Shown here in pieces: positions 2,227 through 64,000 of a stretch of DNA of 64,000 nt. Numbering within the stretch: position 1 is the stretch's first letter; each line of letters starts with the position of its first letter. Source of the DNA: Balaenoptera acutorostrata (taxonomy: Eukaryota; Chordata; Mammalia; Artiodactyla; Balaenopteridae); NCBI RefSeq assembly GCF_949987535.1, contig NC_080082.1, positions 44,145,874-44,209,873 of the forward strand, written 5' to 3'. The notes under the pieces were generated by a model. That model was not told the DNA's origin. It ran no database searches and worked only from the letters and a program-made list of their open reading frames with translations. Position numbers and translations under genes: made by a program.

Positions 2227-2615
2227 TGGATGAAACCAACTGGGAAAAGAGCCGTTCTAAGTTGTGGACCATGGTGTCTTACCCTAGTCTACACAGAAAC
2301 AGCACTCTGAGGGAGAGGAGCTGCTGGTGTTTGGTAGCACAATCTCCTATTTGATGAGAAACATTTCGTTGTAAGCGGGTTGTATCAGCCTTGCCACGTT
2401 TTCTCAACTGGGTATAAAGGAGGGCAGTCAGTAGTCCTCACCCTTCAAACCTACTCCAATTTCATAGAGGAAACACCAAGCCTCGGTATGGTCTCCTGTG
2501 GCAAGGAAACTTTGCTTTCATTCCTTAGGTGGCACATTGGCTCAGAAATGCCCTACCCCAAGGATTCAGTTATGTGCATCCCGATTACTTGAGATCAGCC
2601 CTTCTGGCTCTTTCA
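2227..2615 (+). repeat. Chimeric monomer: A linker with B tail (389 bp)
   Basis: The linker starts B-like (ccacgttttctcaactgg) and becomes A-like (tataaaggagggcagtcag and a cctcacccttcaaacctac region). The tail is B-like (cccgattacttgagatcag). Related chimeras occur at 7732 and, in the linker portion, at 28659 and 40765. This indicates exchange within monomers rather than only between whole units. Confidence 0.8.
2364..2380 (+). other. Intact CENP-B box
   Basis: TTTCGTTGTAAGCGGGT keeps TTCG, A and CGGG at the nine essential positions. It differs from the full consensus only by T for G at position 9 and T for A at position 17. CENP-B, a pogo-transposase-derived protein, binds this motif through its N-terminal DNA-binding domain and helps organise centromeric chromatin in mammals. 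This is the only intact site in the first 7.8 kb. Here it follows the shorter tttgatgag variant and sits in a chimeric monomer. Confidence 0.8.
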
Positions 2616-5600
2616 TGGCTGAAACCAACTGGGAAAAGTACCGTTCTAAGCAGGGGACCATGGTGTCTTTCCCTAGTCTACACAGAAACAGCGCTCTGAG
2701 CGAAACGAGCTGCTGGCATTTGGTAGCAAAATCTGCTATGTGAAGAGAAACATTTCGCTGTAAGTGGGTTGCATCAGCCTTGCTACATTTTCCCAACTGG
2801 CTTTAAAGTAGGGTAGTCATTTGGCAAACTTACTTGAGGCCCTGCTTCCCAGGCTGGAAATTTTGCTTTCATTCCTTAGGTAGCACATTGGCTCAGGACG
2901 GCCTTACCCCAAGGATTCAGGGTTGTGCAGCCCGATTACTTGAGATCAGCCCTTCCGGCTCTTTCATGGATGAAACCTACTGGGAAAAGAGCCGTTCTTA
3001 GCTGGGGACCATGGTGTCTTTCCCTAGTCTACACAGAAACAGCACTCTGAGGGAGACGAGCTGCTGACGTTTGGTAGGAAAATCTGCTATTCTGAAGTGA
3101 AACATTTCCTTGTAAGCGGGTTGCATCAGCCTTGCCTCATTTTCACAAGTGGCTATAAAGGAGGGCAGTCAGTAGACCTCACACTTCAAGCCCACTCCAA
3201 TTTAACAGAGAAAACAGCAGGCCTCGGTTTGCTTTCCTGTGGCAAGTAAACCTGGCTTTCATTCATTAGGGGGCACTTTGGCTCAAAACTGCCCTACCCC
3301 AAGGATTCAGGAATGTTCAGCCCGATTGTTTGAGAACAGCTTTTCTGGCCCTTTCATGGATGAAATCAACTGGGAAAAGAGCCGTTCTAAGCTAGGGACC
3401 ATGGTGTCTTTCCCTAGTCTACACAGAAACAGCACTCTGAGGGAGACGAGCTGCTGGCGTTTGGTAGAAAAATCTCCTATTCTGAAGAGAAACATTTCTT
3501 TGCAAGCGGGTTGCATCAGCCTTGCCACATTTTCTCAACTGGCTTTAAAGGAGGGCAGTCAGTTGGCAGACTTCCTTGAGGCCCTTCTTCCCAGGCTGGA
3601 AACTTTGCTTTCATTCCTTAGTTGGCACATTGGCTCAGGACTGCCTTACCCCAAAGATTCAGGGTTGTGCAGCCCTATTAGTTGATATCAGCCCTTCTGG
3701 CTCTTTCATGGATGAAACCAACTGGGAAAAGAGTCGTTCTAAGTTGGGGCCCATGCTGTCTTACCCTAGTCTACACAGAAACAGCACTCTGAGGGAGAGC
3801 AGCTGCTGGTGTTTGGTAGCACAATCTCCTATTCTGAAGAGAAACATTTCCTTGTAAGCGGGTTGCATCAGCCTTGCCACATTTTCTCAACTGGCTTTAA
3901 AGAAGGGCAGTCAGTTGGCAGACTTACTTGAGGCCCTGCTTCCCACGCTGGAAACTTTGCTTTCATTCCTTCGTTAGCACATTGGCTCAGGACGGCCTTA
4001 CCCCAAGGATTCAGGGATGTGCAGCCCGATTACTTGAGATCAGCCCTTCCGGCTCTTTCATGGATGAAACCAAGTGGGAAAAGAGCCGTTCTAAGCTGGG
4101 GACCATGGTGTCTTTCCCTAGTCTACACAGAAACAGCACTCTGAGGGAGACGAGGTGCTGGCGTTTGGTAGCAAAATCTCCTATTCTGAAGAGAAACATT
4201 TCATTGTAAGCGGGTTGCATCAGCCTTGCCTCATTTTCACAAGTGGCTATAAAGTAGGGCAGTCAGTAGGCCTCACCCTGCAAGCCCACTCCAATTTCCT
4301 AGAGAAAACACCAGGCCTCGGTGTGCTTTCCTGTGGCAAGTAAAGTTTGCTTTCATTCCTTAGGGGGCACTTTGGCTCAGAACTGCCCTACCCCAAGGAT
4401 TCAGGAATGTTCAGCCCGATTGTTTGAGAACAGCTTTTCTGGCTCTTTCATGGATGAAACCAACTGGGAAAAGAGCCGTTCTAAGCTGGGGACCATGGTG
4501 TCTTTCCCTAGTCTACACAGAAACAGCACTCTGAGGGAGACGAGCTGCTGGCATTTGGTAGCACAATCTCCTATTCTGAAGAGAAACATTTCGTTGTAAG
4601 TGGGATGCATCAGCCTTGCCACATTTTCTCAACTGGCTTTAAAGAAGGGCAGTCAGTTGGCAGACTTCCTTGAGTCCCTGCGTCCCAGGCTGGAAACTTT
4701 GCTTTCATTCCTTAGTTGGCTCATTGGCTCAGGACTGCCTTACCCCAAAGATTCAGGGATGTGCAGCCCTATTAGTTGAGATCAGCCCTTCTGGCTCTTT
4801 CATGGATGAAACCAACTGGGAAAAGAGCCGTTCTAAGTTGGGGCCCATGGTGTCTTACCCTAGTCTACACAGAAACAGCACTCTGAGGGAGAGGGGCTGC
4901 TGGTGTTTGGTAGCACAATCTCCTATTTGATGAGAAACATTTCCTTGTAAGCGGGTTGCATCAGCCTTGCCACATTTTCTCAACTGGCTTTAAAGAAGGG
5001 CAGTCAGTTGGCAGACTTACTTGAGGCCCTGCTTCCCACGCTGGAAACTTTGCTTTCATTCCTTCGTTAGCACATTGGCTCAGGACGGCCTTACCCCAAG
5101 GATTCAGGGATGTGCAGCCCGATTACTTGAGATCAGCCCTTCCGGCTCTTTCATGGATGAAACCAACTGGGAAAAGAGCCGTTCTAAGCTGGGAACCATG
5201 GTGTCTTACCCTAGTCTACAAAGAAACAGCACTCTGAGGGAGAGGAGCTGCTGGTGTTTGGTAGCACAATCTCCTATTCTGAAGAGAAACATTTCGTTGT
5301 AAGTGGGATGCATCTGCCTTGCCACATTTTCTCAACTGGCTTTAAAGAAGGGCAGTCAGTTGGCAGACTTCCTTGAGTCCCTGCGTCCCAGGCTGGAAAC
5401 TTTGCTTTCATTCCTTAGTTAGCACATTGGCTCAGGACGGCCTTACCCCAAGGATTCAGGGATGTGCAGCCCGATTACTTGAGATCAGCCTTTCTGGCTC
5501 TTTCATGGATGAAACCAACTGGGAAAAGAGTCGTTCTAAGCTGGGGACCATGGTGTCTTTCCCTAGTCTACACAGAAACAGCACTCTGAGTGAGACGAGC

Positions 5601-5895
5601 TGCTGGCGTTTGGTAGCAAAATCTCCTATTCTGAAGAGAAACATTTCATTGTAAGCGGGTTGCATCAGCCTTGCCTCATTTTCACAAGTGGCTATAAAGT
5701 AGGGCAGTCAGTAGGCCTCACCCTGCAAGCCCACTCCAATTTCCTAGAGAAAACACCAGGCCTCGGTGTGCTTTCCTGTGGCAAGTAAAGTTTGCTTTCA
5801 TTCCTTAGGGGGCACTTTGGCTCAGAACTGCCCTACCCCAAGAATTCAGGAATGTTCAGCCCGATTGTTTCAGAAAAGCTTTTCTGGCTCTTTTA

Positions 5896-8800
5896 TGGAT
5901 GAAACCAACTGGGAAAAGAGCCGTTCTAAGCTGGGAACCATGGTGTCTTACCCTAGTCTACACAGAAACAGCACTCTGAGGGAGAGGAGCTGTTGGCGTT
6001 TGGTAGCACAATCTCCTATTCTGAAGAGAAACATTTCATTGTAAGTGGGATGCATCTGCCTTGCCACATTTTCTCAACTGGCTTTAAAGAAGGGCAGTCA
6101 GTTGGCAGACTTCCTTGAGTCCCTGCGTCCCAGGCTGGAAACTTAGCTTTCATTCCTTAGTTAGCACATTGGCTCAGGACGGCCTTACCCCAAAGATTCA
6201 GGGATGTGCCGCCCGATTACTTGAGATCAGCCCTTTTGGCTCTTTCATGGATGAAACCAACTGGAAAAAGAGCCGTTCTAAGCTGGGGACCATAGTGTCT
6301 TTCCCTAGTCTACACAGAAACAGCACTCTGAGGGACACGAGGTGCTGGCGTTTGGTAGCACAATCTCCTATTCTGAAGAGAAACATTTCGTTGTAAGCAG
6401 GTTGCATCAGCCTTGCCTCATTTTCTCAAGTGGCTATAAAGGAGGGCAGTCAGTAGGCCTCACCCTTCAAGCCCACTCCAATTTCCTAGAGAAAACACCA
6501 GGCCTCGGTGTGCTTTCCTGTGGCAAGTAATCTTTGCTTTCATTCCTTAGGGGGCACTTTGGCTCAGAACTGCCCTACCCCAAGGATTCAGGAATGTTCA
6601 GCCCGATTGTTTCAGAAAAGCTTTTCTGGCTCTTTCATGGATGAAACCAACTGGGAAAAGAGCCGTTCTAAGCTGGGAACCATGGTGTCTTACCCTAGTC
6701 TACACAGAAACAGCACTCTGAGGGAGAGGAGCTGCTGGCGTTTGGTAGCACAATCTCCTATTCTGAAGAGAAACATTTCGTTGTAAGTGGGATGCATCTG
6801 CCTTGCCACATTTTCTCAACTGGCTTTAAAGAAGGGCAGTCAGTTGGCAGACTTCCTTGAGTCCCTGCGTCCCAGGCTGGAAACTTTGCTTTCATTCCTT
6901 AGTTAGCACATTGGCTCAGGACGGCCTTACCCCAAGGATTCAGGGATGTGCAGCCCGATTACTTGAGATCAGCCCTTCTGGCTCTTTCATGGATGAAACC
7001 AACTGGGAAAAGAGCCGTTCTAACCTGGGGACCATGGTGTCTTTCCCTAGTCTACACAGAAACAGCACTCTGAGTGAGACGAGGTGCTGGCATTTGGTAG
7101 CACAATCTCCTATTCTGAAGAGAAACATTTCGTTGTAAGCAGGTTGCATCAGCCTTGCCTCATTTTCACAAGTGGCTATAAAGGAGGGCAGTCAGTAGGC
7201 CTCACCCTTCAAGCCCACTCCAATTTCCTAGAGAAAACACCAGGCCTCGGTGTGCTTTCCTGTGGCAAGTAAACTTTGCTTTCATTCCTTAGGCGGCACT
7301 TTGGTTCAGAACTGCCCTACCCCAAGGATTCAGGAATGTTCAGCCCGATTGTTTGAGAACAGCTTTTCTGGCTCTTTCATGGATGAAACCAACTGGGAAA
7401 AGAGCCGTTCTATGCTGGGGACCATGGTGTCTTTCCCTAGTCTACACAGAAACAGCACTCTGAAGGAGACGAGCTGCTGGCGTTTGGTAGCACAATCTCC
7501 TATTCTGAAGAGAAACATTTCGTTGTAAGTGGGATGCATCAGCTTTGCCACATTTTCTCAACTGGCTTTAAAGAAGGGCAGTCAGTTGGCAGACTTCCTT
7601 GAGGCCCTTCTTCCCAGGCTGGAAACTTTGCTTTCATTCCTTAGTTGGCACATTGGCTCAGGACTGCCTTACCCCAAAGATTCAGGGATGTGCAGCCCTA
7701 TTAGTTGAGATCAGCCCTTCTGGCTCTTTCATGGATGAAACCAACTGGGAAAAGAGCCGTTCTAAGTTGTGGACCATGGTGTCTTACCCTAGTCTACACA
7801 GAAACAGCACTCTGAGGGAGAGGAGCTGCTGGTGTTTGGTAGCACAATCTCCTATTTGATGAGAAACATTTCGTTGTAAGCGGGTTGTATCAGCCTTGCC
7901 ACGTTTTCTCAACTGGGTATAAAGGAGGGCAGTCAGTAGTCCTCACCCTTCAAACCTACTCCAATTTCATAGAGGAAACACCAAGCCTCGGTATGGTCTC
8001 CTGTGGCAAGGAAACTTTGCTTTCATTCCTTAGGTGGCACATTGGCTCAGAAATGCCCTACCCCAAGGATTCAGTTATGTGCATCCCGATTACTTGAGAT
8101 CAGCCCTTTTGGCTCTTTCATGGCTGAAACCAACTGGGAAAAGTGCCGTTCTAAGCAGGGGACCATGGTGTCTTTCCCTAGTCTACACAGAAACAGCGCT
8201 CTGAGCGAAACGAGCTGCTGGCATTTGGTAGCAAAATCTGCTATGTGAAGAGAAACATTTCGCTGTAAGTGGGTTGCATCAGCCTTGCTACATTTTCCCA
8301 ACTGGCTTTAAAGTAGGGTAGTCATTTGGCAAACTTACTAGAGGCCCTGCTTCCCAGGCTGGAAATTTTGCTTTCATTCCTTAGGTAGCACATTGGCTCA
8401 GGACGGCCTTACCCCAAGGATTCAGGGTTGTGCAGCCCGATTACTTGTGATCAGCCCTTCCGGCTCTTTCATGGATGAAACCTACTGGGAAAAGAGCCGT
8501 TCTTAGCTGGGGACCATGGTGTCTTTCCCTAGTCTACACAGAAACAGCACTCTGAGGGAGACGAGCTGCTGACGTTTGGTAGGAAAATCTGCTATTCTGA
8601 AGTGAAACATTTCCTTGTAAGCGGGTTGCATCAGCCTTGCCTCATTTTCACAAGTGGCTATAAAGGAGGGCAGTCAGTAGACCTCACACTTCAAGCCCAC
8701 TCCAATTTAACAGAGAAAACAGCAGGCCTCGGTTTGCTTTCCTGTGGCAAGTAAACCTGGCTTTCATTCATTAGGGGGCACTTTGGCTCAAAAATGCCCT

Positions 8801-9603
8801 ACCCCAAGGATTCAGGAATGTTCAGCCCGATTGTTTGAGAACAGCTTTTCTGGCCCTTTCATGGATGAAATCAACTGGGAAAAGAGCCGTTCTAAGCTAG
8901 GGACCATGGTGTCTTTCCCTAGTCTACACAGAAACAGCACTCTGAGGGAGAGCAGCTGCTGGCGTTTGGTAGAAAAATCTCCTATTCTGAAGAGAAACAT
9001 TTCCTTGTAAGCGGGTTGCATCAGCCTTGCCACATTTTCTCAACTGGCTTTAAAGGAGGGCAGTCAGTTGGCAGACTTACTTGAGGCCCTGCTTCCCACG
9101 CTGGAAACTTTGCTTTCATTCCTTCGTTAGCACATTGGCTCAGGACGGCCTTACCCCAAGGATTCAGGGATGTGCAGCCCGATTATTTGAGATCAGCCTT
9201 TCTGGCTCTTTCGTGGATGAAACCAACTGGGAAAAGAGTCGTTCTAAGCTGGGGACCATGGTGTCTTTCCCTAGTCTACACAGAAACAGCACTCTGAGTG
9301 AGACGAGCTGCTGGCGTTTGGTAGCAAAATCTCCTATTCTGAAGAGAAACATTTCATTGTAAGCGGGTTGCATCAGCCTTGCCTCATTTTCACAAGTGGC
9401 TATAAAGTAGGGCAGTCAGTAGGCCTCACCCTGCAAGCCCACTCCAATTTCCTAGAGAAAACACCAGGCCTCGGTGTGCTTTCCTGTGGCAAGTAAAGTT
9501 TGCTTTCATTCCTTAGGGGGCACTTTGGCTCAGAACTGCCCTACCCCAAGAATTCAGGAATGTTCAGCCCGATTGTTTCAGAAAAGCTTTTCTGGCTCTT
9601 TTA
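5896..9603 (+). repeat. Shortened left unit, 10 monomers, 3,708 bp
   Basis: Monomers start at 5896, 6248, 6638, 6990, 7380, 7732, 8121, 8472, 8862 and 9214, giving strict B-A alternation. The unit matches the 5,505-bp unit to its left up to about 9060. It then jumps to sequence resembling the end of that unit, so five monomers (1 A and 4 B, 1,797 bp) are absent. The junction lies in the monomer 8862-9213, near ggagggcagtcagttggcag. The simplest explanation is unequal exchange between misaligned B linkers. It contains one intact CENP-B box, at 7869. Confidence 0.85.
7869..7885 (+). other. Intact CENP-B box
   Basis: Counterpart of the site at 2364, exactly 5,505 bp downstream, also behind the tttgatgag variant. 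Confidence 0.8.
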
Positions 9604-11926
9604 TGGATGAAACCAACTGGGAAAAGAGCCGTTCTAAGCTGGGAACCATGGTGTCTTACCCTAGTCTACACAGAAACAGCACTCTGAGGGAGAGGAGCTG
9701 TTGGCGTTTGGTAGCACAATCTCCTATTCTGAAGAGAAACATTTCATTGTAAATGGGATGCATCTGCCTTGCCACATTTTCTCAACTGGCTTTAAAGAAG
9801 GGCAGTCAGTTGGCAGACTTCCTTGAGTCCCTGCGTCCCAGGCTGGAAACTTAGCTTTCATTCCTTCGTTAGCACATTGGCTCAGGACGGCCTTACCCCA
9901 AGGATTCAGGGATGTGCAGCCCGATTACTTGAGATCATCCCTTCTGGCTCTTTCATGGATGAAACCAACTGGGAAAAGAGCCGTTCTAAGCTGGGGACCA
10001 TGGTGTCTTTCCCTAGTCTACACAGAAACAGCACTCTGAGGGACACGAGGTGCTGGCGTTTGGTAGCACAATCTCCTATTCTGAAGAGAAACATTTCGTT
10101 GTAAGCAGGTTGCATCAGCCTTGCCTCATTTTCTCAAGTGGCTATAAAGGAGGGCAGTCAGTAGGCCTCACCCTTCAAGCCCACTCCAATTTCCTAGAGA
10201 AAACACCAGGCCTCGGTGTGCTTTCCTGTGGCAAGTAATCTTTGCTTTCATTCCTTAGGGGGCACTTTGGCTCAGAACTGCCCTACCCCAAGGATTCAGG
10301 AATGTTCAGCCCGATTGTTTCAGAAAAGCTTTTCTGGCTCTTTCATGGATGAAACCAACTGGGAAAAGAGCCGTTCTAAGCTGGGAACCATGGTGTCTTA
10401 CCCTAGTCTACACAGAAACAGCACTCTGAGGGAGAGGAGCTGCTGGCGTTTGGTAGCACAATCTCCTATTCTGAAGAGAAACATTTCGTTGTAAGTGGGA
10501 TGCATCTGCCTTGCCACATTTTCTCAACTGGCTTTAAAGAAGGGCAGTCAGTTGGCAGACTTCCTTGAGTCCGTGCGTCCCAGGCTGGAAACTTTGCTTT
10601 CATTCCTTAGTTAGCACATTGGCTCAGGACGGCCTTACCCCAAGGATTCAGGGATGTGCAGCCCGATTACTTGAGATCAGCCCTTCTGGCTCTTTCATGG
10701 ATGAAACCAACAGGGAAAAGAGCCGTTCTAACCTGGGGACCATGGTGTCTTTCCCTAGTCTACACAGAAACAGCACTCTGAGTGAGACGAGGTGCTGGCG
10801 TTTGGTAGCACAATCTCCTATTCTGAAGAGAAACATTTCGTTGTAAGCAGATTGCCTCAGCCTTGCCTCATTTTCACAAGTGGCTATAAAGGAGGGCAGT
10901 CAGTAGGCCTCACCCTTCAAGCCCACTCCAATTTCCTAGAGAAAACACCAGGCCTCGGTGTGCTTTCCTGTGGCAAGTAAACTTTGCTTTCATTCCTTAG
11001 GGGGCACTTTGGTTCAGAACTGCCCTACCCCAAGGATTCAGGAATGTTCAGCCCGATTGTTTGAGAACAGCTTTTCTGGCTCTTTCATGGATGAAACCAA
11101 CTGGGAAAAGAGCCGTTCTATGCTGGGGACCATGGTGTCTTTCCCTAGTCTACACAGAAACAGCACTCTGAAGGAGACGAGCTGCTGGCGTTTGGTAGCA
11201 CAATCTCCTATTCTGAAGAGAAACATTTCGTTGTAAGTGGGATGCATCAGCCTTGCCACATTTTCTCAACTGGCTTTAAAGAAGGGCAGGCAGTTGGCAG
11301 ACTTCCTTGAGGCCCTTCTTCCCAGGCTGGAAACTTTGCTTTCATTCCTTAGTTGGCACATTGGCTCAGGACTGCCTTACCCAAAAGATTCAGGGATGTG
11401 CAGCCCTATTAGTTGAGATCAGCCCTTCTGGCTCTTTCATGGATGAAACCAACTGGGAAGAGCCGTTCTAAGTTGTGGACCATGGTCTCTTACCCTAGTC
11501 TACACAGAAACAGCACTCTGAGGGAGAGGAGCTGCTGGTGTTTGGTAGCACAATCTCCTATTTGATGAGAAACATTTCCTTGTAAGCGGGTTGCATCAGC
11601 CTTGCCACATTTTCTCAACTGGCTTTAAAGAAGGGCAGTCAGTTGGCAGACTTACTTGTGGCCCTGCTTCCCACGCTGGAAACTTTGCTTTCTTTCCTTC
11701 GTTAGCACATTGTCTCAGGACGGCCTTACCCCAAGGATTCAGGGATGTGCAGCCCAATTACTTGAGATCAGCCCTTCTGGCTCTTTCATGGATGAAACCA
11801 ACTGGGAAAAGAGCCGTTCTTAGCTGGGGACCATGGTGTCTTTCCCTAGCATACACAGAAACAGCACTCTGAGTGAAACGAGATGCTGGCGTTTGGTAGC
11901 AAAATCTCCTATTCTGAAGAGAAACA

Positions 11927-11943
11927 TTTCGTTGTAAGCGGGT
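11927..11943 (+). other. Intact CENP-B box
   Basis: Followed by an A linker starting gcctcagccttgcctc. First member of a pair 742 bp apart; the site between has the TGTG lesion. Confidence 0.8.
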
Positions 11944-12178
11944 TGCCTCAGCCTTGCCTCATTTTCACAAGTGGCTATAAAGGAGGGCAGTCAGTAGGCC
12001 TCACCCTTCAAGCCCACTCCAATTTCCTAGGGAAAACACCAGGCCTCGGTGTGCTTTCCTGTGGCAAGTAAACTTTGCTTTCATTCCTTAGGGGGCACTT
12101 TGGCTCAGAACTGCCCTACCCCAAGGATTCAGCAGTGTTCAGCCCGATTGTTTGAAAATAGCTTTTCTGGCTCTTTCA

Positions 12179-12530
12179 TGTATGAAACCAACTGGGCAAA
12201 GAGCCGTTCTAAGCTGGGGACCATGGTGTCTTAACCTAGTCTACACAGAAGCAGCACTCTGAGGGAGAGAAGCTGCTGGCGTTTGGAAGCACAATCTCCT
12301 ATTCTGAAGAGAAACATTTCGTTGTAAGTGTGATGCATCACCCTTGCCACATTTTCTCAACTGGCTTTAAAGAAGGGCAGTCAGTTGGCAGACTTCCTTG
12401 AGTCCCTGCGTCCCAGGCTGGAAACTTTACTTTCATTCCTTAGGGGGCACTTTGGCTCAGAACTGCCCTACCCCAAGGATTCAGCAATGTTCAGCCCGAT
12501 TGTCTGAGAACAGCTTTTCTGGCTCTTTCA
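12179..12530 (+). repeat. Chimeric monomer: B linker with A tail (352 bp)
   Basis: The 352-bp length and the linker ttggcagacttccttgag are B features. The tail after cattccttaggggg is A (gcaatgttcagcccgattg, gagaacagc). The same chimera recurs at 16201, 25768, 29048, 37874, 41154, 43341, 47363 and 49550. It is therefore a stable third monomer class spread by amplification. Confidence 0.8.
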
Positions 12531-12668
12531 TGGATGAAACCAACTGGGAAAAGAGCCGTTCTAAGCTGGGGACCATGGTGTCTTTCCCTAGTCTACACAG
12601 AAACAGCACTCTGAGGGAGACGAGCTGCTGGCGTTTGGTAGCACAATCTCCTATTCTGAAGAGAAACA

Positions 12669-12685
12669 TTTCGTTGTAAGCGGGT
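12669..12685 (+). other. Intact CENP-B box
   Basis: Second member of the pair. It is followed by a B linker with the ccacatgttctc variant, which marks this box lineage in later copies. Confidence 0.8.
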
Positions 12686-15600: not shown

Positions 15601-15948
15601 CTTGTAAGCGGGTTGCATCAGCCTTGCCACATTTTCTCAACTGGCTTTAAAGAAGGGCAGTCAGTTGGCAGACTTACTTGTGGCCCTGCTTCCCACGCTG
15701 GAAACTTTGCTTTCATTCCTTCGTTAGCACATTGGTTCAGGACGGCCTTACCCCAAGGATTCAGGGATGTGCAGCCCAATTACTTGAGATCAGCCCTTCT
15801 GGCTCTTTCATGGATGAAACCAACTGGGAAAAGAGCCGTTCTTAGCTGGGGACCATGGTGTCTTTCCCTAGTCTACACAGAAACAGCACTCTGAGTGAAA
15901 CGAGATGCTGGCGTTTGGTAGCAAAATCTCCTATTCTGAAGAGAAACA

Positions 15949-15965
15949 TTTCGTTGTAAGCGGGT
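15949..15965 (+). other. Intact CENP-B box
   Basis: Followed by an A linker. It lies 1,445 bp before the next intact site. Confidence 0.8.
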
Positions 15966-50056: not shown

Positions 50057-50615
50057 TGCATCAGCCTTGCCACATGTTCTCAACTGGCTTTAAAGAAGGG
50101 CAGTCCGTTGGCAGACTTCCTTGAGGCCCTGCTTCCCACGCTGGAAACTTTGCTTTCATTCCTTCGTTAGCACATTGGCTAAGGACGGCCTTACCCCAAG
50201 GATTCAGGGATGTGCAGCCCGATTACTTGAGATCAGCCCTTCTGGCTCTTTCATGGATGAAACCAACTGGGAAAAGAGCCGTTCTTAGCTGGGGACCATG
50301 GTGTCTTTCCCTAGTCTACACAGAAACAGCACTCTGAGTGAAACGAGATGCTGGCGTTTGGTAGCACAATCTCCTATTCTGAAGAGAAACATTTCCTTGT
50401 AAGCGGGTTGCCTCAGCCTTGCCTCATTTTCACAAGTGGCTATAAAGGAGGGCAGTCAGTAGGCCTCACCCTTCAAGCCCACTCCAATTTCCTAGAGAAA
50501 ACACCAGGCCTCGGTGTGCTTTCCTGTGGCAAGTAAAGTTTGCTTTCATTCCTTAAGGGGCACTGTGGCTCAGAACTGCCCTACCCCAAGGTTTCAGGAA
50601 TGTTCAGCCCGATTG

Positions 50616-53537: not shown

Positions 53538-53963
53538 CCCGATTACCTGAGATCAGCCCTTCTGGCTCTTTCATTGATGAAACCAACTGGGAAAAGAGCC
53601 GTTCTAAGCTGGGGACCATGGTGTCTTTCCCTAGTCTACACAGAAACAGCACTCTGAGGGAGACGAGCTGCTGGCGTTTGGTAGCACAATCTCCTATTCT
53701 GAAGAGAAACATTTCGTTGTAAGCAGGTTGCATCAGCCTTGCCTCATTTTCACAAGTGGCTATAAAGGAGGGCAGTCAGTAGGCCTCACCCTTCAAGCCC
53801 ACTCCAATTTCCTAGAGAAAACACCAGGCCTCGGTGTGCTTTCCTGTGGCAAGTAAACTTTGCTTTCATTCCTTAGGGGGCACTTTGGCTCAGAACTGCC
53901 CTACCCCAAGGATTCAGGAATGTTCAGCCCGATTGTTTGAGAACAGCTTTTCTGGCTCTTTCA

Positions 53964-55722
53964 TGGATGAAACCAACTGGGAAAAGAGCCGTTCTAAGCT
54001 GGGGACCATGGTGTCTTTCCCTAGTCTACACAGAAACTGCACTCTGAGGGAGACGAGCTGCTGGCATTTGGTAGCACAATCTCCTATTCTGAAGAGAAAC
54101 ATTTCGTTGTAAGTGGGATGCATCAGCCTTGCCACATTTTCTCAACTGGCTTTAAAGAAGGGCAGTCAGTTGGCAGACTTCCTTGAGGCCCTTCTTCCCA
54201 GGCTGGAAACTTTGCTTTCATTCCTTAGTTGGCACATTGGCTCAGGACTGCCTTACCCCAAAGATTCAGGGATGTGCAGCCCTATTAGTTAAGATCAGCC
54301 CTTCTGGCTCTTTCATGGATGAAACCAACTGGGAAAAGAGCCGTTCTAAGTTGAGGCCCATGGTGTCTTACCCTAGTCTACACAGAAACAGCACTCTGAG
54401 GGAGAGGAGCTGCTGGTGTTTGGTAGCACAATCTCCTATTTGATGAGAAACATTTCCTTGTAAGCGGGTTGCATCAGCCTTGCCACATTTTCTCAACTGG
54501 CTTTAAAGAAGGGCAGTCAGTTGGCAGACTTCCTTGAGTCCCTGCGTCCCAGGCTGGAAACTTTGCTTTCATTCCTTAGTTAGAACATTGGCTCAGGACG
54601 GCCTTACCCCAAGGATTCAGGAATGTTCAGCCCGATTGTTTGAGAACAGCTTTTCTGGCTCTTTCATGGATGAAACCAACTGGGAAAAGAGCCGTTCTAA
54701 GCTGGGGACCATGGTGTCTTTCCCTAGTCTACACAGAAACAGCACTCTGAGGGAGAGGAGCTGCTGGCGTTTGGTAGCACAATCTCCTATTCTGAAGAGA
54801 AACATTTCGTTGTAAGTGGTATGCATCTGCCTTGCCACATTTTCTCAACTGGCTTTAAAGAAGGGCAGTCAGTTGGCAGACTTCCTTGAGGCCCTGCTTC
54901 CCACGCTGGAAACTTTGCTTTCTTTCCTTCGTTAGCACATTGGCTCAGGACGGCCTTACCCCAAGGATTCAGGGATGTGCAGTCCGAATACTTGAGATCA
55001 GCCCTTACGGCTCGTTCATGGATGAAACCAACTGGGAAAAGAGCCGTTCTTAGCTGGGGACCATGGTGTCTTTCCCTAGTCTACACAGAAACAGCACTCT
55101 GAGTGAAACGAGATGCTGGCCTTTGGTAGCACAATCTCCTATTCTGAAGAGAAACATTTCGTTGTAAGTGGGATGCATCAGCCTTGCCACATTTTCTCAA
55201 CTGGCTTTAAAGAAGGGCAGTCAGTTGGCAGACTTCCTTGAGTCCCTGCGTCCCTGGCTGGAAACTTTGCTTTCATTCCTTAGGGGGCACTTTGGCTCAG
55301 AAATGCCCTACCCCAAGGATTCAGCAATGTTCAGCCCGATTGTTTGAGAAGAGCTTTTCTGGCTCTTTCACGGATGAAACCAACTGTGAAAAGAGCCGTT
55401 CTAAGCTGGGGACCATGGTGTCTTTCCCTAGTCTACACAGAAACAGCACTCTGAGGGAGAGGAGCTGCTGGCGTTTGGTAGCACAATCTCCTATTCTGAA
55501 GAGAAACATTTCGTTGTAAGTGGTATGCATCTGCCTTGCCACATTTTCTCAACTGGCTTTAAAGAAGGGCAGTCAGTTGGCAGACTTCCTTGAGGCCCTG
55601 CTTCCCACGCTGGAAACTTTGCTTTCTTTCCTTCGTTAGCACATTGGCTCAGGACGGCCTTACCCCAAGGATTCAGGGATGTGCAGCCCGATTACTTGAG
55701 ATCAGCCCTTCCGGCTCTTTCA
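53964..55722 (+). repeat. Run of five consecutive B monomers
   Basis: Starts at 53964, 54316, 54667, 55019, 55371 and 55723 are 352, 351, 352, 352 and 352 bp apart. This is the longest stretch without an A monomer in the window. Part of it is a 704-bp (two-B) local duplication, seen in the pair 54617-54838 and 55321-55542, which share the tgtaagtggtatgcatctg variant. The monomer 54316-54666 joins a B linker to an A tail. Confidence 0.85.
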
Positions 55723-56249
55723 TGGATGAAACCAACTGGGAAAAGAGCCGTTCTTAGCTGGGGACCATGGTGTCTTTCCCTAGTCTACACAGAAACAGCA
55801 CTCTGAGTGAAACGAGATGCTGGCGTTTGGTAGCAAAATCTCCTATTCTGAAGAGAAACATTTCCTTGTAAGCGGGTTGCCTCAGCCTTGCCTCATTTTC
55901 ACAAGTGGCTATAAAGGAGGGCAGTCAGTAGGCCTCACCCTTCAAGCCCACTCCAATTTCCTAGAGAAAACACCAGGCCACGGTGTGCTTTCCTGTGGCA
56001 AGTAAACTTTGCTTTCATTCCTTAGGGGGCACTTTGGCTCAGAACTGCCCTACCCCAAGGATTCAAGAATGTTCAGCCCGATTGTTTCAGAAAAGCTTTT
56101 CTGGCTCTTTCATGGATGAAACCAACTGGGAAAAGAGCCGTTCTAAGCTGGGCACCATGGTGTCTTACCCTAGTCTAACAGAAACAGCACTCTGAGGGAG
56201 ACGAGCTGCTGGCGTTTGGTAGCAAAATCTCCTATTCTGAAGAGAAACA

Positions 56250-56266
56250 TTTCGTTGTAAGCGGGT
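56250..56266 (+). other. Intact CENP-B box
   Basis: Lies in a monomer that also has a palindrome before its start, a combination not seen to the left of this point. B linker with gtcacattttctgaactgg. Confidence 0.8.
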
Positions 56267-56601
56267 TGCATCAGCCTTGTCACATTTTCTGAACTGGCTT
56301 TAAAGAAGGACAGTCAGTTGGCAGACTTACTTGAGGCCCTGCTTCCCAGGCTGGAATCTTTGCTTTCATTCCTTAGTTAGCACATTGGCTCAAGACGGCC
56401 TTACCCCAAGGATTCAGGGTTGTGCAGCCCGATTACTTGAGATCAGGCCTTCTGGCTCTTTCATGGATGAAACCAACTGGGAAAAGAGCCATTCTAAGCT
56501 GGGGACCACGGTGTCTTTCCCTAGTCTACACAGAAAGAGCACTCTGAGTGAAAAGAGCAGCTGACGTTTGGTAGCAAAATCTCCTATTCTGAAGAGAAAC
56601 A

Positions 56602-56618
56602 TTTCGTTGTAAGCGGGT
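56602..56618 (+). other. Intact CENP-B box
   Basis: Only 352 bp after the previous site. This is the one case of intact boxes in neighbouring monomers. A linker follows. Confidence 0.8.
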
Positions 56619-57000
56619 TGCATCAGCCTTGCCTCATTTTCACAAGTGGCTATAAAGGAGGGCAGTCAGTAGGCCTCACCCTTCAAGCCCACTCCAATTT
56701 CCTAGAGAAAACACCAGGCCTCGGTGTGCTTTCCTGTGGCAAGTAAACTTTGCTTTCATTCCTTAGGGGGCACTTTGGCTCAGAACTGCCCTACCCCAAG
56801 GATTCAGGAATGTTCAGCCCGATTGTTTGAGAATAGCTTTTCTGGCTCTTACATGGATGAAACCAACTGGGAAAAGAGCCGTTCTAAGCTGGGGACCATG
56901 GTGTCTTACCCTAGTCTACACAGAAACAGCACTCTGAGGGAGAGGAGCTGCTGGCGTTTGGTAGAACAATCTCCTATTCTGAAGAGAAACATTTCATGTA

Positions 57001-58527
57001 AGTGGGATGCATCAGCCTTGCCACATTTTCTCAACTGGCTTTAAAGAAGGGCAGTCAGTTGGCAGACTTCCTTGAGTCCCTGCGTCCCTGGCTGGAAACT
57101 TTGCTTTCATTCCTTAGGGGGCACTTTGGCTCAGAAATGCCGTACCCCAAGGATTCAGGATTGTTCAGCCCGATTGTTTGAGAACAGCTTTTCTGGCTCT
57201 TTCATGGATGAAACCAACTGGAAAAGAGCCGTTCTAAGCTGGGGACCATGGTGTCTTTCCCTAGTCTACACAGAAACAGCACTCTGAGGGAGAGGAGCTG
57301 CTGGCGTTTGGTAGCACAATCTCCTATTCTGAAGAGAAACATTTCGTTGTAAGTGGTATGCATCTGCCTTGCCACATTTTCTCAACTGGCTTTAAAGAAG
57401 GGCAGTCAGTTGGCAGACTTCCTTGAGGCCCTGCTTCCCACGCTGGAAACTTTGCTTTCTTTCCTTCGTTAGCACATTGGCTCAGGACGGCCTTACCCCA
57501 AGGATTCAGGGATGTGCAGTCCGAATACTTGAGATCAGCCCTTACGGCTCGTTCATGGATGAAACCAACTGGGAAAAGAGCCGTTCTTAGCTGGGGACCA
57601 TGGTGTCTTTCCCTAGTCTACACAGAAACAGCACTCTGAGGGAGAGGAGCTGCTGGCGTTTGGTAGCAAAATCTCCTATTCTGAAGAGAAACATTTCCTT
57701 GTAAGCGGGTTGCCTCAGCCTTGCCTCATTTTCACAAGTGGCTATAAAGGAGGGCAGTCAGTAGGCCTCACCCTTCAAGCCCACTCCAATTTCCTAGAGA
57801 AAACACCAGGCCTCGGTGTGCTTTCCTGTGGCAAGTAAAGTTTGCTTTCATTCCTTAGGGGGCACTTTGGCTCAGAACTGCCCTACCCCAAGGATTCAGG
57901 AATGTTCAGCCCAATTGTTTCAGAAAAGCTTTTCTGGCTCTTTCATGGATGAAACCAACTGGGAAAAGAACCGTTCTTAGCTGGGGACCATGGTGTCTTT
58001 CCCTAGTCTACACAGAAACAGCACTCTGAGGGAGACGAGCTGCTGGCGTTTGGTAGCAAAATCTCCTATTCTGAAGAGAAACATTTCGTTGTAAGCGGGT
58101 TGCATCAGCCTTGTCACATTTTCTGAACTGGCTTTAAAGAAGGGCAGTCAGTTGGCAGACTTACTTGAGCCCCTGCTTCCCAGGCTGGAATCTTTGCTTT
58201 CATTCCTTAGTTAGCACATTGGCTCAGGACAGCCTTACCCCAAGGATTCAGGGTTGTGCAGCCCGATTACTTGAGATCAGCCCTTCTGGCTCTTTCATGG
58301 ATGAAACCAACTGGGAAAAGAGCCGTTCTAAGCTGGGGACCATGGTGTCTTTCCCTAGTCTACACAGAAACAGCACTCTGAGGGAGAGGAGCTGCTGGCG
58401 TTTGGTAGCAAAATCTCCTATTCTGAAGAGAAACATTTCTTTGCAAGCAGGTTGCATCAGCCTTGCCACATTTTCTCAACTGGCTTTAAAGAAGGGCAGT
58501 CAGTTGGCAGACTTCCTTGAGGCCCTG
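57001..58527 (+). repeat. Segment repeated at +5,473 bp, copy 1
   Basis: This stretch matches 62474-64000. Shared rare marks are ccaactggaaaagagccg (one base deleted), gtccgaatacttgag, cttacggctcgttcatgg and aaagaaccgttcttagc. Differences include cattccttag at 58207 against cattccttac at 63680, and tagcaaaatc against tagcacaatc at 58407/63880. Confidence 0.8.
58084..58100 (+). other. Intact CENP-B box
   Basis: Palindrome-bearing monomer, B linker with gtcacattttctgaactgg. Confidence 0.8.
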
Positions 58528-58836
58528 CTTCCCACGCTGGAAACTTTGCTTTCATTCCTTCGTTAGCACATTGGCTCAGGACGGCCTTACCCCAAGGATT
58601 CAGGGATGTGCACCCCGATTACTTGAGATCAGCCCTTCTGGCTCTTTCATGGATGAAACCAATTGGGAAAAGAGCCGTTCTAAGCTGGGGACCATGGTGT
58701 CTTTCCCTAGTCTACACAGAAACAGCACTCTGAGGGAGACGAGCTGCTGGCGTTTGGTAGCACAATCTCCTATTCTGAAGAGATACATTTCGTTGTAAGC
58801 AGGTTGCATCAGCCTTGCCTCATTTTCACAAGTGGC

Positions 58837-58844
58837 TATATAAA
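58837..58844 (+). promoter_or_regulatory. TATATAAA: consensus-like TATA motif made by a 2-bp insertion
   Basis: All other A linkers have ggctataaaggaggg (or ctataaagtaggg) here. This one has ggctatataaaggaggg, which makes its monomer 392 bp long. The new motif fits the eukaryotic TATA consensus better than the array norm. Whether it directs transcription cannot be told from sequence. Confidence 0.35.
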
Positions 58845-59378
58845 GGAGGGCAGTCAGTAGGCCTCACTCTTCAAGCCCACTCCAATTTCCTAGAGAAAAC
58901 ACCAGGCCTCGGTGTGCTTTCCTGTGGCAAGTAAACTTTGCTTTCATTCCTTAGGGGACACTTTGGCTTAGAACTGCCCTACCCCAAGGATTCAGGAATG
59001 TTCAGCCCGATTGTTTGAGAATAGCTTTTCTGGCTCTTTCATGGATGAAACCAACTGGGAAAAGAGCCGTTCTAAGCTGGGGACCATGGTGTCTTACCCT
59101 AGTCTACACAGAAACAGCACTCTGAGGGAGAGGAGCTGCTGGCGTTTGGTAGCACAATCTCCTATTCTGAAGAGAAACATTTCGTTGTAAGTGGGATGCA
59201 TCAGCCTTGCCACATTTTCTCAACTGGCTTTAAAGAAGGGCAGTCAGTTGGCAGACTTACTTGAGGCCCTGCTTCCCACGCTGGAAACTTTGCTTTCATT
59301 CCTTCGTTAGCACATTGGCTCAGGACCGCCTTACCCCAAGGATTCAGGGATGTGCAGCCCGATTACTTGACATCAGCC

Positions 59379-60803
59379 CTTCTGGCTCTTTCATGGATGA
59401 AACCAACTGGGAAAAGAGCCTTTCTAAGCTGGGCACCATGGTGTCTTTCCCTAGTCTACACAGAAACAGCACTCTGAGGGAGACGAGCTGCTGGCGTTTG
59501 GTAGCAAAATCTCCTATTCTGAAGAGAAACATTTCGTTGTAAGCGAGTTGCATCAGCCTTGTCACATTTTCTGAACTGGCTTTAAAGAAGGGCAGTCAGT
59601 TGGCAGACTTACATGAGGCCCTGCTTCCCAGGCTGGAATCTTTGCTTTCATTCCTTCGTTAGCACATTGGCTCAGGACGGCCTTACCCCAAGGATTCAGG
59701 GTTGTGAAGCCCGATTACTTGAGATCAGCCCTTTTGGCTCTTTCATGGATGAAACCAACTGGGAAAAGAGCCGTTCTAAGCTGGGGACCATGGTGTCTTT
59801 CCCTAGTATACACAGAAAGAGCGCTCTGAGTGAAACGAGATGCTGACGTTTGGTAGCAAAATCTCCTATTCTGAAGAGAAACATTTCGTTGTAAGCAGGT
59901 TGCATCAGCCTTGCCTCATTTTCACAAGTGGCTATAAAGGAGGGCAGTCAGTAGGCCTCACCCTTCAAGCCCACTCCAATTTCCTAGAGAAAACACCAGG
60001 CCTCGGTGTGCTTTCCTGTGGCAAGTAAACTTTGCTTTCATTCCTTAGGGGGCACTTTGGCTCAGAACTGCCCTACCCCAAGGATTCAGGAATGTTCACC
60101 CCGATTGTTTGAAAATAGCTTTTCTGGCTCTTTCATGGATGAAACCAACTGGGCAAAGAGCCGTTCTAAGCTGGGGACCATGGTGTCTTACCCTAGTCTA
60201 CACAGAAACAGCACTCTGAGGGAGAGAAGCTGCTGGCGTTTGGTAGCACAATCTCCTATTCTGAAGAGAAACATTTCGTTGTAAGTGTGATGCATCACCC
60301 TTGCCACATTTTCTCAACTGGCTTTAAAGAAGGGCAGTCAGTTGGCAGACTTCCTTGAGGCCCCGCTTCCCACGCTGGAAACTTTGCTTTCATTCCTTAG
60401 GCGGCACTTTGGCTCAGAACTGCCCTACCCCAAGGATTCAGCAATGTTCAGCCCGATTGTCTGAGAACAGCTTTTCTGGCTCTTTCATGGATGAAACCAA
60501 CTGGGAAAAGAGCCGTCCTAAGCTGGGAACCATGGTGTCTTACCCTAGTCTACACAGAAACAGCACTCTGAGGGAGAGGAACTGCTGGCGTTTGGTAGCA
60601 AAATCTCCTATTCTGAAGAGAAACATTTCGTTGTAAGTGGGATGCATCTGCCTTGCCACATTTTCTCAACTGGCTTTAAAGAAGGGCAGTCAGTTGGAAG
60701 ACTTCCTTGAGTCCCTGCGTCCCAGGCTGGAAACTTTGCTTTCATTCCTTAGTTAGCACATTGGCTCAGGACGGCCTTACCCCAAGGATTCAGGGATGTG
60801 CAG
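59379..60803 (+). repeat. Segment repeated at +7,266 bp, copy 2
   Basis: This is the counterpart of 52113-53537. Substitutions seen here include cccttttggc near 59733, gttcaccccgatt near 60098, actgggcaaagag near 60151 and gaggccccgcttcc near 60360. It is therefore an older copy than the 12.1-kb pair. It ends where gcagtccgaatac replaces gcagcccgattac at 60804. Confidence 0.82.
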
Positions 60804-61367
60804 TCCGAATACTTGAGATCAGCCCTTACGGCTCATTCATGGATGAAACCAACTGGGAAAAGAGCCATTCTTAGCTGGGGACCATGGTGTCTTTCCCTAG
60901 TCTACACAGAAACAGCACTCTGAGTGAAACGAGATGCTGGCATTTGGTAGCAAAATCTCCTATTCTGAAGAGAAACATTTCCTTGTAAGCGGGTTGCCTC
61001 AGCCTTGCCTCATTTTCACAAGTGGCTATAAAGGAGGGCAGTCAGTAGGCCTCACCCTTCAAGCCCACTCCAATTTCCTAGAGAAAACACCAGGCCTCGG
61101 TGTGCTTTCCTGTGGCAAGTAAAGTTTGCTTTCATTCCTTAGGGGGCACTTTGGCTCAGAACTGCCCTACCCCAAGGATTCAGGAATGTTCAGCCCAATT
61201 GTTTCAGAAAAGCTTTTCTGGCTCTTTCATGGATGAAACCAACTGGGAAAAGAACCGTTCTTAGCTGGGGACCATGGTGTCTTTCCCTAGTCTACACAGA
61301 AACAGCACTCTGAGGGAGACGAGCTGCTGGCGTTTGGTAGCAAAATCTCCTATTCTGAAGAGAAACA

Positions 61368-61384
61368 TTTCGTTGTAAGCGGGT
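61368..61384 (+). other. Intact CENP-B box
   Basis: Partner of 58084 at +3,284. Confidence 0.8.
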
Positions 61385-62120
61385 TGCATCAGCCTTGTCA
61401 CATTTTCTGAACTGGCTTTAAAGAAGGGCAGTCAGTTGGCAGACTTACTTGAGCCCCTGCTTCCCAGGCTGGAATCTTTGCTTTCATTCCTTACTTAGCA
61501 CATTGGCTCAGGACAGCCTTACCCCAAGGATTCAGGGTTGTGCAGCCCGATTACTTGAGATCAGCCCTTCTGGCTCTTTCATGGATGAAACCAACTGGGA
61601 AAAGAGCCGTTCTAAGCTGGGGACCATGGTGTCTTTCCCTAGTCTACACAGAAACAGCACTCTGAGGGAGAGGAGCTGCTGGCGTTTGGTAGCAAAATCT
61701 CCTATTCTGAAGAGAAACATTTCTTTGCAAGCAGGTTGCATCAGCCTTGCCACATTTTCTCAACTGGCTTTAAAGAAGGGCAGTCAGTTGGCAGACTTCC
61801 TTGAGGCCCTGCTTCCCACGCTGGAAACTTTGCTTTCATTCCTTCGTTAGCACATTGGCTCAGGACGGCCTTACCCCAAGGATTCAGGGATGTGCACCCC
61901 GATTACTTGAGATCAGCCCTTTTGGCTCTTTCATGGATGAAACCAATTGGGAAAAGAGCCGTTCTAAGCTGGGGACCATGGTGTCTTTCCCTAGTCTACA
62001 CAGAAACAGCACTCTGAGGGAGACGAGCTGCTGGCGTTTGGTAGCACAATCTCCTATTCTTAAGAGATACATTTCGTTGTAAGCAGGTTGCATCAGCCTT
62101 GCCTCATTTTCACAAGTGGC

Positions 62121-62128
62121 TATATAAA
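62121..62128 (+). promoter_or_regulatory. TATATAAA: second copy of the TATA-like insertion
   Basis: This is the same two-base insertion as at 58837, located 3,284 bp downstream. It was copied as part of the duplicated segment. Confidence 0.35.
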
Positions 62129-62473
62129 GGAGGGCAGTCAGTAGGCCTCACTCTTCAAGCCCACTCCAATTTCCTAGAGAAAACACCAGGCCACGGTGTG
62201 CTTTCCTGTGGCAAGTAAACTTTGCTTTAATTCCTTAGGGGACACTTTGGCTCAGAACTGCCCTACCCCAAGGATTCAGGAATGTTCAGCCCGATTGTTT
62301 GAGAATAGCTTTTCTGGCTCTTTCATGGATGAAACCAACTGGGAAAAGAGCCGTTCTAAGCTGGGGACCATGGTGTCTTACCCTAGTCTACACAGAAACA
62401 GCACTCTGAGGGAGAGGAGCTGCTGGCGTTTGGTAGCACAATCTCCTATTCTGAAGAGAAACATTTCGTTGTA

Positions 62474-64000
62474 AGTGGGATGCATCAGCCTTGCCACATT
62501 TTCTCAACTGGCTTTAAAGAAGGGCAGTCAGTTGGCAGACTTCCTTGAGTCCCTGCGTCCCTGGCTGGAAACTTTGCTTTCATTCCTTAGGGGGCACTTT
62601 GGCTCAGAAATGCCGTACCCCAAGGATTCAGGATTGTTCAGCCCGATTGTTTGAGAACAGCTTTTCTGGCTCTTTCATGGATGAAACCAACTGGAAAAGA
62701 GCCGTTCTAAGCTGGGGACCATGGTGTCTTTCCCTAGTCTACACAGAAACAGCACTCTGAGGGAGAGGAGCTGCTGGCGTTTGGTAGCACAATCTCCTAT
62801 TCTGAAGAGAAACATTTCGTTGTAAGTGGTATGCATCTGCCTTGCCACATTTTCTCAACTGGCTTTAAAGAAGGGCAGTCAGTTGGCAGACTTCCTTGAG
62901 GCCCTGCTTCCCACGCTGGAAACTTTGCTTTCTTTCCTTCGTTAGCACATTGGCTCAGGACGGCCTTACCCCAAGGATTCAGGGATGTGCAGTCCGAATA
63001 CTTGAGATCAGCCCTTACGGCTCGTTCATGGATGAAACCAACTGGGAAAAGAGCCGTTCTTAGCTGGGGACCATGGTGTCTTTCCCTAGTCTACACAGAA
63101 ACAGCACTCTGAGGGAGAGGAGCTGCTGGCGTTTGGTAGCAAAATCTCCTATTCTGAAGAGAAACATTTCCTTGTAAGCGGGTTGCCTCAGCCTTGCCTC
63201 ATTTTCACAAGTGGCTATAAAGGAGGGCAGTCAGTAGGCCTCACCCTTCAAGCCCACTCCAATTTCCTAGAGAAAACACCAGGCCTCGGTGTGCTTTCCT
63301 GTGGCAAGTAAAGTTTGCTTTCATTCCTTAGGGGGCACTTTGGCTCAGAACTGCCCTACCCCAAGGATTCAGGAATGTTCAGCCCAATTGTTTCAGAAAA
63401 GCTTTTCTGGCTCTTTCATGGATGAAACCAACTGGGAAAAGAACCGTTCTTAGCTGGGGACCATGGTGTCTTTCCCTAGTCTACACAGAAACAGCACTCT
63501 GAGGGAGACGAGCTGCTGGCGTTTGGTAGCAAAATCTCCTATTCTGAAGAGAAACATTTCGTTGTAAGCGGGTTGCATCAGCCTTGTCACATTTTCTGAA
63601 CTGGCTTTAAAGAAGGGCAGTCAGTTGGCAGACTTACTTGAGCCCCTGCTTCCCAGGCTGGAATCTTTGCTTTCATTCCTTACTTAGCACATTGGCTCAG
63701 GACAGCCTTACCCCAAGGATTCAGGGTTGTGCAGCCCGATTACTTGAGATCAGCCCTTCTGGCTCTTTCATGGATGAAACCAACTGGGAAAAGAGCCGTT
63801 CTAAGCTGGGGACCATGGTGTCTTTCCCTAGTCTACACAGAAACAGCACTCTGAGGGAGAGGAGCTGCTGGCGTTTGGTAGCACAATCTCCTATTCTGAA
63901 GAGAAACATTTCTTTGCAAGCAGGTTGCATCAGCCTTGCCACATTTTCTCAACTGGCTTTAAAGAAGGGCAGTCAGTTGGCAGACTTCCTTGAGGCCCTG
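62474..64000 (+). repeat. Segment repeated at +5,473 bp, copy 2 (cut by window end)
   Basis: This is the counterpart of 57001-58527 and runs off the right edge of the window, so its true end is unknown. It contains one intact box at 63557 and the last monomer start at 63771. Confidence 0.78.
63557..63573 (+). other. Intact CENP-B box
   Basis: Partner of 58084 at +5,473 and the last intact site before the window ends. Confidence 0.8.

What the first reader, a model, noticed from the sequence alone, without database searches (positions are those of the whole stretch)
2364..63573. Non-alpha satellite family carrying bona fide-looking CENP-B boxes at a fixed phase
Sequence shows a 17-bp site at about +138 in every monomer. 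27 of 175 copies match all nine essential CENP-B box bases and 15 of 17 consensus bases. Known: this motif is the binding site of CENP-B in human alpha satellite and mouse minor satellite, which are otherwise unrelated. Finding it in an unrelated 352/390-bp family suggests that the satellite is centromeric and that the box was acquired or kept by selection or convergence. A rough hand estimate puts a match of 15/17 or better by chance within one 390-bp monomer, both strands, at a few in ten thousand.
Basis: partly seen in the sequence, partly recalled or inferred. Interest (0 to 1): 0.88.

Follow-up and report, generated by a model that had tools for sequence, protein, structure and literature searches.

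The report
Satellite array with polymorphic CENP-B boxes
A 64,000-base stretch, likely from a mammalian centromere region, is one unbroken satellite array in which 27 of 175 repeat units keep every base known to be needed for binding by the centromere protein CENP-B, so CENP-B would probably bind there, while the other units carry the same site in broken versions.

Summary
The window is one head-to-tail satellite array of about 352-bp (S) and 390-bp (L) monomers, each with one 17-bp CENP-B-box site at the same place. At 27 of 175 sites all nine essential bases and 15 of 17 consensus bases match. In 20,000 shuffles of the L consensus, 9 gave 9/9, 6 gave 15/17 or better, none both.

Corrections. 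(1) The 27 are not independent: the array is a young higher-order repeat (two 12,106-bp, 33-monomer units, 99.96% identical), and they fall into 8 of 44 monomer types. (2) Nothing shows selection keeping the box here: it has the most parsimony changes of the windows tested (0 of 53 controls reach its 40; two reach 39), and broken-box types are amplified as readily as intact ones. By plain diversity or allele number it is unexceptional. (3) The intact box looks ancestral: lesions mostly occur singly, and 8 of 14 related metagenome peptides keep FVVSG at the box.

Published mouse minor satellite behaves alike: intact boxes in a subset, variation concentrated in the box. Best reading: a centromere-type satellite with sparse boxes predicted to bind CENP-B. 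Species, chromosomal position and binding are untested.

The parts
1..64000 (+). Satellite array of about 352-bp (S) and 390-bp (L) monomers, head to tail, running off both ends of the window
   Evidence: TRF 282-64000, period 352, 174 copies; the same repeat is visible from base 1; 107 S and 67 L whole monomers
18449..30554 (+). First copy of a 33-monomer higher-order repeat unit (12,106 bp), with 5 intact boxes
30555..42660 (+). Second copy of the same 33-monomer unit, 99.96% identical to the first, with 5 intact boxes
139..155 (+). First box site of the window, broken (TTTCATTGTAAGCGGGT); shows the phase
2364..2380 (+). Intact CENP-B box, monomer type G
7869..7885 (+). Intact CENP-B box, type G
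11927..11943 (+). Intact CENP-B box, type P
12669..12685 (+). Intact CENP-B box, type R
15949..15965 (+). Intact CENP-B box, type P
17394..17410 (+). Intact CENP-B box, type Y
22236..22252 (+). Intact CENP-B box, type R
25516..25532 (+). Intact CENP-B box, type P
26961..26977 (+). Intact CENP-B box, type Y
28796..28812 (+). Intact CENP-B box, type c
29538..29554 (+). Intact CENP-B box, type R
34342..34358 (+). Intact CENP-B box, type R
37622..37638 (+). Intact CENP-B box, type P
39067..39083 (+). Intact CENP-B box, type Y
40902..40918 (+). Intact CENP-B box, type c
41644..41660 (+). Intact CENP-B box, type R
43089..43105 (+). Intact CENP-B box, type P
43831..43847 (+). Intact CENP-B box, type R
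47111..47127 (+). Intact CENP-B box, type P
47853..47869 (+). Intact CENP-B box, type R
49298..49314 (+). Intact CENP-B box, type P
50040..50056 (+). Intact CENP-B box, type R
56250..56266 (+). Intact CENP-B box, type j
56602..56618 (+). Intact CENP-B box, type k (the only pair of intact boxes in adjacent monomers, with the one at 56250)
58084..58100 (+). Intact CENP-B box, type n
61368..61384 (+). Intact CENP-B box, type n
63557..63573 (+). Intact CENP-B box, type n

Best explanation
This is a recently homogenised higher-order satellite array, likely from a mammalian centromere region, in which every monomer has one CENP-B-box site at the same place and 27 of 175 sites keep all nine essential bases and would be predicted to bind CENP-B. 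Shown by the calls: the array, the fixed phase, the 9/9 and 15/17 match, the 33-monomer units, and the fact that most monomers carry the same site with one essential base changed. Inferred: the common ancestor of the S and L monomers had an intact box, and lineages lost it separately. Inferred mechanism: CENP-B would bind the intact boxes when their two CpGs are unmethylated, would position neighbouring nucleosomes and would help hold CENP-A and CENP-C, while the broken boxes would stay unbound. This sets a sparse density of about one binding site per 2.35 kb. The array would thus work like mouse minor satellite or human alpha satellite, as a weak or flanking CENP-B platform rather than a box-dense core. 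Array copying appears indifferent to the state of the box.
For: 27 cores of 9/9 against 0.08 expected; 0 of 20,000 consensus shuffles give both 9/9 and 15/17 or better. Fixed phase. Higher-order structure: 44 monomer types, two tandem 33-mers of 12,106 bp at 99.96% identity, and a median best-match identity of 100% between monomers. Mean spacing of intact boxes 2,354 bp. Intact ancestor: 119 of 174 monomers have one essential mismatch, 28 have two and 27 none; by type 29, 7 and 8 of 44. Lesions in the 5' TTCG and in the 3' CGGG rarely share a monomer (12 of 174; 4 of 44 types; Fisher p = 2e-13 and 0.005), as expected if separate lesions hit an intact box. Of 20 related metagenome proteins, 14 span the box in frame and 8 of these read FVVSG, which keeps G5, G14 and G15. 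CpG observed/expected is 0.28 with TpG and CpA excess, as in methylated vertebrate genomes. No hairpin excess in either consensus (z = 0.04 and 0.02), in line with the low dyad symmetry that a review reports for box-bearing satellites (PMC8997354, passages). Mouse minor satellite also has intact boxes in only a subset of units and its variability concentrated in the box (PMC10880262, passages).
Against: No sign of purifying selection on the box: essential columns are more diverse than average, the box has the most parsimony changes of the windows tested, and intact types have 3.4 copies on average against 4.1 for broken ones (p = 0.73). The S consensus is not intact. Intact density (15%) is below the 36-72% of three New World monkeys (PMC4904201) and near the 20% of the mouse 112-mer arrays, which have low CENP-A enrichment (PMC10880262). 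No species, chromosomal position, methylation or binding data. Against elevated turnover: counted as distinct alleles the box is not unusual (8 against 5.7 expected, 23% of offsets reach it), and by plain diversity 32% of 17-bp windows are at least as variable.
Confidence: 0.55

Rival explanations
1. Relic or flanking array: the family was once box-bearing and centromeric, but this stretch lies in pericentromeric or inactive satellite and its remaining boxes are methylated and unbound.
For: Only 15% of sites are intact and both CpGs of the box are often lost (CpG1 kept in 63% and CpG2 in 51% of monomers). In human cells boxes outside the centromere core are largely unoccupied and methylation of one CpG abolishes occupancy (PMC12008808, passages). 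Mouse MiSats at the pericentric junction have the lowest box density (PMC10880262, passages).
Against: The array is very young (two 12,106-bp units 99.96% identical), whereas array edges are described as disordered monomeric satellite (PMC8997354, passages). No decay gradient was looked for outside this window.
Confidence: 0.27
2. Chance match: a neutral 17-bp segment that happens to fit the CENP-B core, never bound, copied by satellite turnover.
For: Nine essential bases arise by chance in 9 of 20,000 shuffled consensus monomers, and many satellites exist. No conservation of the essential bases.
Against: 15 of 17 together with 9/9 was reached in 0 of 20,000 shuffles. The site was apparently intact in the ancestor and 8 of 14 related sequences keep FVVSG. 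The array has the higher-order organisation known from centromeres.
Confidence: 0.13
3. The site is bound by another protein of the pogo-transposase kind (for example a CENP-B-like or POGZ-like factor) and not by CENP-B.
For: Such relatives are known to share DNA-binding domains with CENP-B (recalled, from no call).
Against: The match is to the CENP-B core itself; nothing here points to another factor.
Confidence: 0.05

Closest known systems
Mouse minor satellite (MiSat)
   Same: One box site per unit; intact in only a subset of units; variation concentrated in and around the box (PMC10880262, passages)
   Different: 120-mer (variants 112-mer and 112-64 dimer) against 352/390 bp here; no sequence comparison was made; mouse MiSat is shown to bind CENP-A
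Human and great-ape alpha satellite with CENP-B boxes
   Same: Higher-order repeats of near-identical units made of diverged monomers; boxes at one fixed place (PMC8997354, passages)
   Different: 171-bp monomers; no similarity beyond shuffles (alpha consensus from memory); boxes usually in every other monomer, here about one in six
New World monkey alpha satellite (marmoset, squirrel monkey, tamarin)
   Same: 340-350 bp repeat units with 9/9 boxes in a fraction of units (15/42, 15/40, 29/41; PMC4904201, passages)
   Different: Belongs to alpha satellite; box positions differ between species; a higher fraction of intact units
Peromyscus PMsat
   Same: 344-346 bp monomer, centromeric in its genus (PMC6733818, passages)
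Dog CarSat1
   Same: 738-bp unit, close to the 742-bp S+L pair here; GC 51% against 48.5%; CENP-A-enriched (PMC3422206, passages)
   Different: Described as having no detectable internal repeat, whereas here S and L consensus are 85% identical; sequence not compared, since no CarSat sequence was at hand
Manatee TMAsat and sloth SATCHO1
   Same: Centromeric mammalian satellites reported with CENP-B box-like motifs
   Different: Only 5-6 of 9 and 5 of 9 essential bases (PMC8421680 and PMC7644632, passages), against 9 of 9 here

Membership tests
CENP-B box | Nine essential bases NTTCGNNNNANNCGGGN | tested here: met
   27 of 175 sites; 148 of 175 fail by one or two bases (147, one)
CENP-B box | Match to the 17-bp consensus YTTCGTTGGAARCGGGA | tested here: met
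   15 of 17 at the 27 intact sites; over 174 sites 65 score 15, 100 score 14, 9 score 13
CENP-B box | Bound by CENP-B | not testable with these tools
   no binding data
CENP-B box | Lies in centromeric satellite DNA with CENP-A chromatin | not testable with these tools
   array and higher-order structure fit; no chromosome map, the window holds no flank
CENP-B box kept by selection | Essential bases less variable than the rest of the monomer | tested here: not met
   diversity 0.163 at essential columns against 0.106 overall; most parsimony changes among the windows tested
Higher-order centromeric satellite | Near-identical multimers of diverged monomers | tested here: met
   33-mer x2 at 99.96%; S and L consensus 85% identical; 44 types
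Alpha satellite | 171-bp monomer and alpha sequence | tested here: not met
Dog CarSat1 | 738-bp unit without internal repeat | tested here: not met
   units of 352 and 390 bp, 85% alike; definition from PMC3422206
Mouse minor satellite | 120-bp unit (112-mer and 112-64-dimer variants) | tested here: not met
   352/390-bp units

The most novel reading that the evidence does not exclude
In unrelated mammalian satellites the CENP-B box is not the conserved heart of the monomer but its fastest-turning-over piece: boxes are repeatedly broken, each by one base, and perhaps remade by short exchanges between monomer classes, so that the array tunes its CENP-B density. This array would be a second, independent case beside mouse minor satellite.
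Probability: 0.22. Interest if true: 0.78.

Novelty: new member of a known kind. Interest (0 to 1): 0.52.

Why it matters
Several reported CENP-B boxes outside primates and house mice have only 4-6 of the nine essential bases (three examples), so a non-alpha satellite with 9/9 and 15/17 at a fixed place is a good test case for how often a box arises and what it does. Because intact and broken boxes sit in otherwise near-identical monomers of one array, CENP-B and CENP-A mapping here would separate the effect of the box from that of the satellite. The finding that the box is the least stable part, as in mouse minor satellite, speaks against the common reading that presence of a box means purifying selection on it.

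Tried and rejected
Source species: no exact match of a 24-base conserved word in viral contigs or genome contigs, no relative by protein pattern in viral contigs, no Rfam family. Text searches for the box letters found no paper. Searches on unit sizes, carnivore, canid, Peromyscus and general mammalian satellites gave no satellite that I could match; these cover open-licence papers only and I saw listings, abstracts and passages. A match to dog CarSat1/Bsp (about 734-738 bp) was considered because S+L is 742 bp, and set aside on internal structure, without its sequence. Lemur centromeric units in PMC13228423 range from 41 to 548 bp in its abstract; the passages I saw name no 352/390-bp pair, but I did not see its Table 2.

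Selection on spacing: one adjacent pair of intact boxes against 4.7 expected, P = 0.28, rejected. Clustering of intact types on the tree: 6 changes against 7.6 in shuffles, P = 0.065, inconclusive. A first count of box changes was biased because only the box was left out of the tree; one search repeats it with every control window left out in turn. The effect remains but narrowly: box 40, best controls 39 and 39, mean 19.9; essential pattern 29 against at most 27; highest single column 13 against 8. The control windows overlap one another. Counting distinct alleles instead shows no excess, so recurrent change or exchange between monomers, not more kinds of mutation, lies behind it; CpG mutability explains part of it but not the frequent G5-to-C. 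Non-B structure: no excess.
Full report
What is there. The window is one satellite array without flanks: TRF reports 282-64000 with period 352 and 174 copies, and the repeat is already visible from base 1. Cutting at a conserved anchor gives 174 whole monomers in two classes, 107 of about 352 bp (S) and 67 of about 390 bp (L). The S and L consensus sequences are 85.2% identical over 352 shared columns; mean identity is 94.2% within S and 95.4% within L. The CpG observed/expected ratio is 0.28 with TpG and CpA in excess, as in methylated vertebrate genomes; 'mammal' is inferred from this and from the fact that CENP-B boxes are described from mammals. The source genome could not be searched (ten unanswered calls).

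Higher-order structure. The median best-match identity between monomers is 100%. At 2% divergence the 174 monomers form 44 types, and the order of types shows a 33-monomer unit in two tandem copies, 18449-30554 and 30555-42660, 12,106 bp each and 99.96% identical. Shorter and overlapping repeats of type words occur around them. This is a recently homogenised higher-order array of the kind known from centromeres (PMC8997354, passages).

The box. All 174 whole monomers have a recognisable site at the same place, 76-78 bases after the anchor; a 175th, broken, lies in the last partial monomer. Twenty-seven match all nine essential bases, 15 in L and 12 in S. By type 8 of 44 are intact: G, P, Y, c, k (L) and R, j, n (S), and in these 8 types every copy is intact. 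All 27 match 15 of 17 consensus bases. Among 20,000 dinucleotide-preserving shuffles of the L consensus 9 have a 9/9 core, 6 have 15/17 or better and none has both. The match is therefore unlikely to be idle chance, though one satellite among many could still reach 9/9.

History of the site. Of 174 monomers 27 have no essential mismatch, 119 have one and 28 have two; of 44 types 8, 29 and 7. Broken versions include TTCC (45 monomers), TGGG, CAGG, TGTG, CGAG, TTCA, TGGT and TTCT. Lesions in the 5' half and in the 3' half are strongly in repulsion (27/83/52/12, p = 2e-13; by type 8/19/13/4, p = 0.005). That is what separate lesions on an intact ancestor would give, since double lesions then need two events. 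I infer that the intact box is ancestral to S and L. A protein search with a reading frame of the array found 6 ENA metagenome proteins and an alignment search found 20 in all, including those 6. Fourteen of the 20 span the box in frame (12 found by script, and P0007 and P0017 read by eye): 8 read FVVSG, 2 FVVSR, 1 FVVSE, 2 FLVSG and 1 FFVSG. FVVSG fixes T2, T3, G5, G14 and G15, but C4, A10, C13 and G16 are silent, so 8 of 14 is an upper limit for intact boxes. Among L monomers of the window 15 of 67 read FVVSG (p = 0.019). The source organisms are unnamed and may be the same species, and three of the 14 (P0002, P0005, P0006) were in the query alignment.

Is the box under selection? Not as far as this array shows. 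Diversity is 0.106 per column over the monomer, 0.120 over the 17 bp and 0.163 over the nine essential columns; 32% of 17-bp windows are at least as diverse as the box. On trees of the 44 types, each built without the window tested, the box needs 40 changes against a mean of 19.9, with 0 of 53 control windows as high but two at 39; the essential pattern needs 29 (0 of 53 as high) and its position 5 needs 13 (0 of 53 windows have a column as high). The control windows overlap. By number of distinct alleles the box is not special (8 against 5.7 expected; 23% of offsets reach it). So the same few changes recur on the tree, through recurrent mutation, in part CpG decay, or through short exchange between monomers. 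S monomers with the L-like ending CGGGT are S-like at 11 or more of the 13 diagnostic columns just downstream, which would fit short exchanges but also old polymorphism. Intact types have 3.4 copies on average and broken ones 4.1 (p = 0.73): array amplification did not favour intact boxes.

How it most likely works. From published work on the box (PMC4904201, PMC12008808, PMC8997354 and PMC10880262, passages read), CENP-B would bind the 27 intact sites if their CpGs are unmethylated, position neighbouring nucleosomes and support CENP-A and CENP-C. With a mean spacing of 2,354 bp this is a sparse platform. In mouse minor satellite the intact box is also present only in a subset of units, variation is concentrated in the box, and arrays with 20% intact boxes have low CENP-A enrichment. 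By that comparison this stretch would be a weak or flanking part of a centromere; in New World monkeys 36-72% of units are intact in three species. All functional steps are inferred.

What it is not. It is not alpha satellite by unit length or by alignment (alpha consensus recalled). It differs in unit structure from dog CarSat1 and in box quality from PMsat, TMAsat and SATCHO1 as published. A review states that carnivores, rabbits and Old World monkeys lack boxes, and another paper mentions box-like blocks in horses, dogs and elephants without functional test. Without the species I cannot say whether this satellite is already catalogued under some name.

Verdict. A new member of a known kind, with an interesting parallel to mouse minor satellite.

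Noticed in passing
18449-42660: Two tandem copies of a 33-monomer, 12,106-bp higher-order unit at 99.96% identity; both window ends use partly other monomer types (type string).
   Followed up: yes
L monomers and S monomers, columns just 3' of the box: S monomers with the L-like box ending CGGGT are S-like at most of the diagnostic columns just downstream, and types G and c are L monomers that are S-like around the box: possible short exchange tracts at the box.
   Followed up: partly
for example 12321-12350: A 30-nt stretch overlapping and following the box in S monomers is 80% self-complementary around GATGCATC, although the whole consensus shows no hairpin excess.
   Followed up: no
P0001-P0020: Twenty predicted proteins from ENA metagenome contigs are translations of this or a related satellite, so host satellite DNA is being annotated as protein in metagenomes.
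   Followed up: partly
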